A stretch of 64,000 bases of DNA from Streptomyces cadmiisoli. GTDB taxonomy: Bacteria; Actinomycetota; Actinomycetes; Streptomycetales; Streptomycetaceae. The notes below the pieces were generated by a model that searched no databases, was not told the origin of the DNA, and worked only from the letters and a program-made list of their open reading frames with translations. Position numbers and translations under genes: made by a program. The stretch is from NCBI RefSeq assembly GCF_003261055.1, contig NZ_CP030073.1, positions 3,782,001-3,846,000 on the forward strand. The letters run 5' to 3'. Shown piece by piece: positions 20,648 through 27,606 of this stretch (position 1 is the first letter of the stretch; each line of letters starts with the position of its first letter).

Positions 20648-22852
20648 CTACAGCTGGCTGAGGATCGTCGGGTCGGTGATCTTTGTGTCGTCGGCCAGCA
20701 TCATCGCCTTGCTGAGGATCACCGCGAGCATCCGGTCCCCCTCGTACGGCAGGTAACCCGGCTGCGGGGACGACGGGTTGGACTTCGGGACGATGCACAG
20801 GTACTGGTCGTTCGGGGTCATCAGGATGTTGCCCGAGCCGAGGTGGATCTTGTACGTGTGGCGCTCGCCCTTCACGTGCAGGAAGCGGCCCTCCAGGGTG
20901 CAGCGGTCGGCGACGGCCAGCCGGGGTATCAGGCGTTCGAGCAGGGTGCGGCGGGTCTCGGCGCTCTGGCTCAGCTCGCCGAAGCCGTACGACGTCCAGT
21001 ACTCGCGGAAGCGGCCCTCGGGGCCGCCGTCCTGCCACGTCGGGTCGTTGCCGACGCTCGCGACACCGACGAACAGGTCGACGTCGCGCAGGACTTCGGA
21101 CAGCACGAGCGGTGGGATCTCGGCGAGGGGGATCGGGTCGACCCGGGCCGTGTCGTCGGGCAGCCACATGCGGTACTCGCCGCCGTAGCAGTGCGCCCAG
21201 TTCTCCGGGGCGCCGATCGGGTAGAAGCGGACCTGGTCGGTGCGCAGGCGCAGGTAGCTGCCGGATTCCGTGGTGTCGACGCCGTAGTCCTCGCCCTCGC
21301 CCTCGATCCAGTACTCGGCGCGCAGGCCCCACTGCGGCAGTTCGCGGGTGGCCGGCGGCGCCTCGTCGTCGACGCACAGACGGAGCTTGTTGCGCCAGCC
21401 CCGGACGGCGGCCAGGGAGTGGAACTGGTGCTGCCGCAGAATGTGCGCCGCGAACCGGTTGGAGTAGGTGCCCGTGGCGCGCTCCGCGTCGGTGAGCAGG
21501 TACACCTCCCGGTGGGCCTGCTTGAACGGCTGGGTGATGCCGTGGCGCTCCAGCCAGTCCCGCCAGGCGACGATCCGGGCGGGTTCGTCGCCGACCGGGT
21601 GCCACAGCCCGACGTCGCCGCCGCCGGTCACCGGGTCGTCGGTGAGGGTGCGCAGCGCTCCGTCCGCGAATCCGACCGTGGTGCCGTCGACCGTCCACAG
21701 CAGGCGGCGGGCGAGGGTGCCGATCAGCGGATGGTCCAGGTAGCGCTCGCGCCACGTGTCGTAGGACCAGGTGCGCCGGGCGAGGAACTGGCGGTCCATG
21801 CGCTCGCTCTGCGCGGAGAGCATCTTGTCGATGTCCTTGACCGCGGCCTTCAGCTCCTTGAGCTCCTCGGCATGGTCCCGCTTCACGGCCGCGGGGACGC
21901 TCTTGACCTCCTTGCCGGCCGCGTTGCGCCAGCTGAGCTGCGCCTTGGCTCCGTGCACCACGACGAGGGCGGTCGCGTCGCCCAGCCGGTGGTGGGCCCG
22001 GCCGACCTCGGTCAGTCCGTAGGCGGGCACCGCCAGTTCCTCGATCTCCTCGCGGCTGAGGCCCATCGCCTCGGCCCGCGCGTCGAGCGCGGTGTTGAGC
22101 AGTTTGAGGGTGCCCTTGTAGGTGACGCGGGTGGCCAGGCGGGCCAGTTCGGCGAGGGCGGCCTCGCCGTCGAGGCGGGCGAGGGCGTTGACCCCGGCGT
22201 TGGCGACCTTGGGGTTCACCGGTCCGAGGCCGGGGACCTTGCGCAGCGCCGTCTCGACGAGGGCACCGAGGACCCGGGCGGACTCGGCGCGGGCGGGCAG
22301 GAAGGACAGCAGCCAGGTGATGCCGCGCAGCGCGTTGGCGTTGTACGCGTCGAAGGCGGCGTTGGCGTACGAGCCTTCGTAGGCCAGGTGCAGCGGGTGC
22401 GTGCGGGGCCGGCCGACGAGGGGCAGCCAGGACAGCAGCCGCTCGCGCGCCGCGTCCGCGCCGACGGCGCCGATCAGTGTGCGGCCGGCCTCCTCCCACT
22501 TCGCCGTGGGGCGGGTGGCGGTGGCGGTGGCCGCGTGCGCGAGCAGCCGGTGCCAGTCCTCACCGAGCCCGTCCAGCTCCTTCAGCGCCTGGTCCGACCA
22601 GGCCTCGCCGGGGTTGAGGACGGGGCCGGGGATCCGCCGGACGAGTGCGCCCAGTCTGCTCGCTCCGTTCCACAGCGTCAGCTGCGAGCGGCGGATCACG
22701 GCGACGAACAGCCCCGGCAGTTCGCGCCCCTCGGCGAGCTCGCGGTCCGCGATGCGGATCAGACCGTCGACGTCGTACTGCGTGTCCAGCTCGGCGGCGG
22801 CGCGCATCAGCGCGGACCGGCCCTCGTGCGACAGTTCGTCGGCCGTGTTCAT
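20648..22852 (-). CDS. DUF4132 (MolR-like) domain protein
   Basis: 734 aa, soluble. The N-terminal two thirds are helical and repeat-like (LAELARLATRVTYKGTLKLL ... HLAYEGSYANAAFDAYNANAL); the DUF4132 region follows, with HGITQPFKQAHREVYLLTD, TGTYSNRFAAHILRQHQF and SYLRLRTDQVRFYP, and the chain ends ILSQL. The function of this family is not established; it turns up in regulatory and conflict-type gene clusters. The ATG at 22852 shares a base with the stop of the small upstream gene (TGATG), so both are made together and probably act together. Confidence 0.85.
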   Translation of the reverse strand: MNTADELSHEGRSALMRAAAELDTQYDVDGLIRIADRELAEGRELPGLFVAVIRRSQLTLWNGASRLGALVRRIPGPVLNPGEAWSDQALKELDGLGEDWHRLLAHAATATATRPTAKWEEAGRTLIGAVGADAARERLLSWLPLVGRPRTHPLHLAYEGSYANAAFDAYNANALRGITWLLSFLPARAESARVLGALVETALRKVPGLGPVNPKVANAGVNALARLDGEAALAELARLATRVTYKGTLKLLNTALDARAEAMGLSREEIEELAVPAYGLTEVGRAHHRLGDATALVVVHGAKAQLSWRNAAGKEVKSVPAAVKRDHAEELKELKAAVKDIDKMLSAQSERMDRQFLARRTWSYDTWRERYLDHPLIGTLARRLLWTVDGTTVGFADGALRTLTDDPVTGGGDVGLWHPVGDEPARIVAWRDWLERHGITQPFKQAHREVYLLTDAERATGTYSNRFAAHILRQHQFHSLAAVRGWRNKLRLCVDDEAPPATRELPQWGLRAEYWIEGEGEDYGVDTTESGSYLRLRTDQVRFYPIGAPENWAHCYGGEYRMWLPDDTARVDPIPLAEIPPLVLSEVLRDVDLFVGVASVGNDPTWQDGGPEGRFREYWTSYGFGELSQSAETRRTLLERLIPRLAVADRCTLEGRFLHVKGERHTYKIHLGSGNILMTPNDQYLCIVPKSNPSSPQPGYLPYEGDRMLAVILSKAMMLADDTKITDPTILSQL

Positions 22853-23244
22853 CAGCCACCCACCAGCGGGACGAGCTTCAGGAACGTGACCTCGGTGCCG
22901 AGACCGAGGTCGATCTCCTCGTCCGCCTCGGTGACCTGCCGGTCCCCGACCAGCACGAGGAAGCCGTTCCCGGCGAACGCGCGGAGCGCCAGCTCGGTCT
23001 GCCGCTCGGGGTCTATCCGGCGGGGGGTGCGCAACGCGTACCCGTTCAGCACGCGCTCCGTGTCCTCGGGCTGCACGAGGCCCTGGAACACGCCCGGCGT
23101 GCGCGCGTTGTACTCGGCGACCTCCTGGAAGACCCGACGCCGGATCAACTCACCTACGGTGAGCCGCTCCTCGGCGACGGCCAGCTCCCAGCCCGCGCCC
23201 CTGTCCCCGGTCGTCGTCTCGTCGACGAACGTCACGATTGCCAT
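22852..23244 (-). CDS. Small ubiquitin-like (beta-grasp) protein ending in Gly-Gly
   Basis: 130 aa from ATG 23244. The N-terminus (MAIVTFVDETTTGD ... GWELAVAEERLTVGELIRRR) reads as beta-hairpin plus helix. The C-terminal 36 residues resemble ubiquitin residues 43-76 in spacing and character: FLVLVGDRQV, then EEIDLGLGTEVTFLKLVPLVGG (split here as EEIDLGLGTEV and TFLKLVPLVGG) against ubiquitin's STLHLVLRLRGG. The chain stops exactly after the Gly-Gly, as mature conjugated modifiers do. An insert of about 45 residues sits between the helix and the third strand. It is coupled to the DUF4132 gene. No E1-, E2- or JAB-like gene is visible in this window. The fold is inferred by eye. Confidence 0.7.
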   Translation of the reverse strand: MAIVTFVDETTTGDRGAGWELAVAEERLTVGELIRRRVFQEVAEYNARTPGVFQGLVQPEDTERVLNGYALRTPRRIDPERQTELALRAFAGNGFLVLVGDRQVTEADEEIDLGLGTEVTFLKLVPLVGG

Positions 23245-23601
23245 GTCGCCGAATGTAGAGCCCACCACTGACAACGGGCCGCCGGGCGGGCAGCGCGGGT
23301 GCCCAGATGGGGAGCGCGGGTGTCCGGGCGGGACGCCGCGCCCGTCGGAGGGGTCCCGGGGTCCCCGGGCGCCGGGTCCGGCGCGGTCGGGGGATCGTGC
23401 GGCCGCAGGACCGGTCCGTCGCTTCTGCCACCGCCGGATGCGGGGAGCCCGCCGCATCGCCCCTCCCCGACCACGCAGCCCCCGGCCCGCTCCACCCCGC
23501 GCCCTCCCTTCCCCCTCCCCCTCACCTCAACGAGTGATCACATGGTCGGACCACGGTTCGGTGACCGCGGTCCCGGCCCGCCTCCCCCCTAGCCTGATGA
23601 C
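23245..23601. other. Divergent intergenic region
   Basis: 357 bp between the minus-strand ubiquitin-like/DUF4132 pair and the plus-strand VOC gene. It must hold promoters for both. Short GC-rich repeats of AGCGCGGGTG occur near 23293-23325. The stretch around 23535-23570 (TGATCACATGGTCGGACCAC) is less GC-rich and contains the palindrome TGGTCGGACCA. I see no supportable gene. Confidence 0.45.
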
Positions 23602-27455: not shown

Positions 27456-27606
27456 CGCTCCTTATTCCGTGGTCGGTCGGTCCCCCAGGTCCTGGGCCAC
27501 AGCATTGGCGGCGGCACGCGCGCGTGGACACGGTCCGCCCATGACTCTCAAGCAACTCCAAAGCGCGGGCGGCCCCGTTGTCGGTGGGCGCGCCGATACT
27601 GGGGGC

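What the first reader, a model, noticed from the sequence alone, without database searches (positions are those of the whole stretch)
20648..23244. Ubiquitin-like protein with free C-terminal Gly-Gly coupled to a DUF4132 protein
The 130-residue product ends TFLKLVPLVGG directly at its stop codon. Its last 36 residues follow the ubiquitin pattern of strand, turn, short helix, final strand and Gly-Gly, and its N-terminus reads as a beta-hairpin plus helix. The downstream DUF4132 gene overlaps its stop by one base. Such a pair may be a ubiquitin-like modifier or sensor with its effector or adaptor. A free Gly-Gly with no processing tail suggests it could be activated directly, yet no E1-, E2- or JAB-like gene is in the window.
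Basis: partly seen in the sequence, partly recalled or inferred. Interest (0 to 1): 0.87.

Follow-up and report, generated by a model that had tools for sequence, protein, structure and literature searches.

The report
Damage-linked bacterial ubiquitin-like protein pair
A small bacterial protein shaped like ubiquitin, with a free Gly-Gly tail, is encoded together with a large uncharacterised partner behind what looks like a DNA-damage promoter, and the pair recurs in distant bacterial phyla.

The parts
22852..23244 (-). Ubiquitin-like (beta-grasp) protein, 130 aa
22855..22860 (-). Codons of the C-terminal Gly129-Gly130
22852..22852 (-). Base shared by the stop codon of the small gene and the ATG of the DUF4132 gene (TGATG)
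20648..22852 (-). DUF4132-DUF7737 protein, 734 aa
22022..22828 (-). Helical N-terminal region (residues 9-277), mostly high confidence in the model; HEAT/ARM-like matches are too weak to name a fold
21395..21916 (-). DUF4132 domain (residues 313-486)
20651..20962 (-). DUF7737 domain (residues 631-734) with His670, Ser673, Cys686, Lys715, Asp722, Asp727, Gln733 the same in 28 of 28 rows that have the domain
23252..23274 (-). RecA-NDp/PafBC-type promoter motif TTGTCAGTG-N8-TACATT, ending 7 bases before the ATG

Best explanation
A two-gene module induced by genotoxic stress. SHOWN: the small protein is predicted to have a ubiquitin/MoaD beta-grasp fold with a flexible free Gly-Gly tail; it is encoded as a unit with a DUF4132-DUF7737 protein across phyla; tail and partner go together in the phylum sample. 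STRONGLY INDICATED: in Streptomycetaceae it is transcribed, probably without a leader, from a PafBC-type promoter, and in Deinococcus from a DdrO-controlled one. INFERRED: after damage the two proteins are made together; a ThiF/E1-type enzyme encoded elsewhere adenylates the C-terminal glycine; the activated tail is handed to the DUF4132 protein, whose helical N-terminus binds substrate and whose DUF4132/DUF7737 part uses the tail. The product may be a Ubl-modified protein, with sulphur transfer as the alternative.
For: Fold; an independent published model of the Deinococcus orthologue also names 5MPO and SAMP1 (section 33 of PMC9650054). Tail kept in 44 of 44 and 80 of 80 with synonymous codon change. 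Tail/partner link: 10 of 10 against 0 of 8; the Gly-Gly-less f16 clade is nested among Gly-Gly proteins (100/99) on a long stem, so tail and partner were probably lost together. Partner on the same strand next door in 40 of 44 and 77 of 80, in two gene orders and four DUF4132 clades, and in Novosphingobium, three Deinococcus and Bacteroides. Promoter; RecA-NDp is the PafBC target (passages of PMC6789036); DdrO site at DRA0165 and IrrE-dependent rise of DRA0166 after mitomycin C (passages of PMC8533742). Precedent for one E1 serving several carriers: mycobacterial MoeZR with MoaD1, MoaD2 and CysO (abstract of PMC3227635); own genome has two ThiF and four ThiS-family genes.
Against: No E1 or JAB gene seen beside the pair. 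Bacteroides keeps the pair with tail LSGRLW. Profile comparison with MoaD/CysO alignments is not significant (probability under 1%). DUF7737 is modelled at low confidence, so no active site can be assigned. Own genome has a second DUF4132-DUF7737 protein without a Ubl and some Ubls stand alone. In D. radiodurans, tagging either end still pulled down 157 shared proteins, and the deletion is more H2O2-resistant; the same paper says no RDRM is present (passages of PMC9650054). Five actinobacterial or proteobacterial loci (L145, L155, L156, L243, L242) show neither the promoter motif nor SOS boxes.
Confidence: 0.5

Rival explanations
1. Non-covalent subunit: the Ubl is a constant structural or regulatory partner of the DUF4132 protein, as YukD or TmoB are described, and the Gly-Gly only fits a groove of the partner.
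For: No E1 in the operon; Bacteroides pair without Gly-Gly; C-terminally tagged DR_A0165 still bound proteins; passages of PMC1779556 say TmoB is a hydroxylase subunit and YukD is not conjugated.
Against: The exact free Gly-Gly end is kept in 80 of 80 loci and from Actinomycetota to Deinococcus and is lost in the 8 homologues whose genomes lack DUF4132.
Confidence: 0.3
2. Sulphur carrier: the tail is made into a thiocarboxylate and the DUF4132 protein is the receiving enzyme for a small molecule or tRNA, as MoaE, ThiG or CysM receive sulphur.
For: Best structural match is a molybdopterin-synthase entry; the genome's ThiF genes are candidate activators; MoeZR sulphurates several carriers.
Against: A sulphur route does not by itself explain the damage promoter; no sulphur-metabolism gene was seen beside the genes in the loci I listed around the pair, though these were not searched family by family.
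Confidence: 0.2

Closest known systems
MoaD / ThiS / CysO sulphur carriers
   Same: beta-grasp fold, free C-terminal Gly-Gly, partner enzyme encoded next door
   Different: no Pfam ThiS match, profile similarity not significant, long insert after helix 1, partner is DUF4132, damage-type promoter
Ubiquitin and archaeal SAMP/Caldiarchaeum ubiquitin
   Different: no E1/E2/JAB gene seen in the operon; no conjugation shown
DR_A0165 (SEP068184) of Deinococcus radiodurans
   Same: direct orthologue: same place before a DUF4132 gene, same LTALAGG ending type
   Different: published as Deinococcus-only and not linked to DUF4132 or to ubiquitin-type tails; its MoaD/SAMP1-like model is already in print
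E. coli-type DUF4132 (MolR) with VWA_CoxE/DUF5682
   Same: DUF4132 domain
   Different: the actinobacterial examples of that kind (L220) have no DUF7737 and no Ubl

Membership tests
Ubiquitin-like beta-grasp fold | beta-beta-alpha-beta-beta topology matching solved members | tested here: met
Ubiquitin-like modifier | free C-terminal Gly-Gly | tested here: met
Ubiquitin-like modifier | activation by an E1-type enzyme | not testable with these tools
   two ThiF genes in the genome, outside the window
Ubiquitin-like modifier | covalent attachment to proteins | not testable with these tools
   needs mass spectrometry
MoaD/ThiS family | sequence-profile similarity | tested here: not met
   no Pfam match at E 10; not among the four own-genome PF02597 matches; hhalign probability under 1%
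Bacterial Ubl operons with E1/E2/JAB (Bil, 6A-6E types) | E1, E2 or JAB genes beside the Ubl | tested here: not met
   own-genome ThiF and Prok-JAB matches lie outside the window; E2 was not searched
E2 (UBC) fold for DUF7737 | UBC fold with catalytic cysteine | tested here: inconclusive
   Cys686 in 28 of 28 rows, but residues 672-707 have pLDDT under 50
RecA-NDp/PafBC promoter class | TTGTCRGTG-N8-TANNNT (consensus recalled) | tested here: met

The most novel reading that the evidence does not exclude
A DNA-damage-inducible ubiquitin-like conjugation pathway of bacteria in which a DUF4132-DUF7737 protein is a new kind of ligase, with invariant Cys686 as candidate thiol acceptor, a bacterial counterpart of ubiquitin signalling in DNA repair.
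Probability: 0.22. Interest if true: 0.93.

Novelty: new variant of a known kind. Interest (0 to 1): 0.78.

Why it matters
DUF4132 proteins are widespread and unexplained. Tying one branch to a ubiquitin-like partner and to DNA-damage promoters in two unrelated phyla (PafBC-type in Streptomyces, DdrO in Deinococcus) gives both proteins a testable role. It also reconnects the published stress protein DR_A0165 with a family far beyond Deinococcus. If the tail is activated, bacteria have a damage-induced ubiquitin-like system.

Tried and rejected
Sequence-only homology: Pfam, NCBIfam, PADLOC and PDB sequence searches gave nothing for the small protein; profile search of the PDB gave only weak PAS hits at E 0.68 or worse and none of use for DUF4132.

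Profile comparison with MoaD/CysO: not significant with full or trimmed alignments, so kinship rests on fold, tail and gene context.

Phage or virus origin: no relative in viral contigs. The pair is not in PADLOC.

Acetobacter plasmid DUF4132: the gene before it is not a Ubl and I saw no Ubl-like ORF in the listed stretch.

A paper search with yehI among its terms was swamped by unrelated names; a search for MoeZ plus Streptomyces found none. SOS-box scan of loci without the promoter motif was empty; my RDRM pattern in that script was wrong, since it missed sites that are plain in the printed sequence.

Full report
THE OBSERVATION. The minus-strand gene 22852-23244 encodes 130 residues ending TFLKLVPLVGG, and its TGA overlaps the ATG of the 734-residue DUF4132 gene by one base. 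The large protein has DUF4132 and, at its C-terminus, DUF7737; the small one matches nothing in Pfam, NCBIfam, PADLOC or PDB sequences. The genome holds one copy of the small gene.

THE TAIL. A search of 150 family genomes found matches in 43; these are 44 distinct genes and 44 of 44 end in Gly-Gly, down to about 38% identity over the matched part, one of them a fragment. A contig scan kept the best 80 of at least 448 relatives, and 80 of 80 end FLKLV[PA]LVGG, with eight codon combinations at the glycines. Across a wider alignment Asp78, Ala86, Ala89, Phe90, Phe121, Leu124, Leu127, Gly129 and Gly130 are invariant.

THE PARTNER. DUF4132 lies next to the small gene on the same strand in 40 of the 44, with a remnant in one more (L028) and none adjacent in three (L026, L030, L038). 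It follows in 77 of the 80; L067, L096 and L126 lack it. In 73 single-piece loci the nearest in-frame start lies within about 10 bases of the end of the small gene, by a rule that picks the first start codon. Both gene orders occur. In a 31-row tree the Ubl-linked proteins fall in four DUF4132 clades, with long-branch warnings. Of seven genomes with a lone or damaged copy, six have DUF4132 somewhere and one (L096) has none.

TAIL AND PARTNER GO TOGETHER. In 396 genomes of the phylum 18 have a homologue. Ten keep Gly-Gly, though in two drafts the gene looks damaged (L132 with an internal stop, L133 shortened), and 10 of 10 have DUF4132. Eight, all in family f16, end otherwise (for example VVASGS, ARSG, VGDA), and 0 of 8 have a DUF4132 match; three of these eight genomes are under 90% complete. 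Nine further genomes have DUF4132 and no Ubl match. The five f16 rows in the Ubl tree are nested with Gly-Gly proteins (100/99) on a stem of 1.32, which reads as joint loss. This is one clade, so it is one or few events, not eight.

OTHER PHYLA. A plasmid search found a 36% identical homologue on a Novosphingobium humi replicon, ending FLYLTPLKGG, followed by DUF4132-DUF7737, and one in Nonomuraea. Searching with the DUF4132 protein gave 13 records, of which I opened six places in full. Three Deinococcus species have a 134-residue gene ending LTALAGG directly before DUF4132. Bacteroides finegoldii has a 139-residue homologue before DUF4132 that ends LSGRLW. Acetobacter has DUF4132 with no Ubl seen.

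PROMOTER. TTGTCAGTG-N8-TACATT at 23252-23274 is an exact match to the RecA-NDp consensus (consensus recalled; no call prints it), ending 7 bases before the ATG; 0.03 matches with up to one mismatch were expected in the window and two were found. Upstream of the 80 loci: exact in 69, one mismatch in 3, two in 6, three in 2, nearly always 6-8 bases before the start. Of 7354 background 200-base stretches from the same loci 6 are exact, and some of those may be true sites, as the exclusion was by position. In 39 further Ubl-first loci: exact 11, one mismatch 15, two 4, three 5, four 1, five 3; the misses include every non-Streptomycetaceae locus tested. DUF-first loci show a related element with one to four mismatches in 10 of 11. 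The f16 loci show none within three mismatches. RecA-NDp is the PafBC target (passages of PMC6789036) and such a promoter precedes a UV-inducible Streptomyces gene (passages of PMC5087735).

DEINOCOCCUS. PMC8533742 (passages) lists the DdrO site GGTTATGCTATTTACATAAC before DRA0165, strong upregulation of drA0165-drA0166 on DdrO depletion, and IrrE-dependent rise of DRA0166 after mitomycin C. The same letters stand before the gene in L244, and like palindromes in L247 and L249. PMC9650054 (passages and section 33) found the protein raised by irradiation and H2O2, a deletion strain more resistant to H2O2, and 157 proteins shared by four pull-downs with tags at either end; it states that no RDRM is present and that the protein is confined to Deinococcus. 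Both statements disagree with the sequences here. The phenotype points to a negative role in oxidative stress, which my reading does not predict.

MECHANISM. Candidate activators exist in the genome: two ThiF genes, one JAB gene beside one of four ThiS-family genes (positions 5531140 and 5531862). One mycobacterial E1-type enzyme serves MoaD1, MoaD2 and CysO (abstract of PMC3227635). DUF7737 carries His670, Ser673, Cys686, Lys715, Asp722, Asp727 and Gln733 in 28 of 28 rows that have it, with and without a Ubl neighbour, so they are not Ubl-specific. The DUF4132 model (48 sequences, pTM 0.46) is confident only in the helical N-terminus. Which reaction follows is therefore open; I commit to a tail that is activated in trans and used by the DUF4132 protein.

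IN PRINT. DUF4132 occurs in three papers of the library. Searches showed none that joins DUF4132 with a ubiquitin-like partner; passages of PMC1779556 and PMC7159879 found by term search do not contain MolR or WGR. Subscription journals and preprints are not held, so this is no proof of novelty.

Noticed in passing
window 27578-27600 (+): A second RecA-NDp-like motif with one mismatch lies just before the likely ATG (about 27607, by my reading of the ORF) of a response-regulator gene, which is followed by a histidine-kinase gene.
   Followed up: no
window 20648-22852: The window's DUF4132 protein has 734 residues; 72 full-length orthologues measured have about 799-835, with some 90 extra N-terminal residues.
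   Followed up: partly
L134-L139, L141, L144: Gly-Gly-less homologues without DUF4132 and with no shared neighbours that I could see.
   Followed up: partly
L246:2419-2838: Bacteroides homologue with tail LSGRLW: tail loss or a short extension after a glycine.
   Followed up: no
L220:2437-10353: DUF4132 without DUF7737 in a locus with VWA_CoxE and DUF5682 genes.
   Followed up: no
L031:1311-6573: Two DUF4132 genes in tandem followed by the ubiquitin-like gene.
   Followed up: partly
L244, upstream of 2634: The DdrO site that one paper lists and another says is absent is present before DR_A0165.
   Followed up: yes
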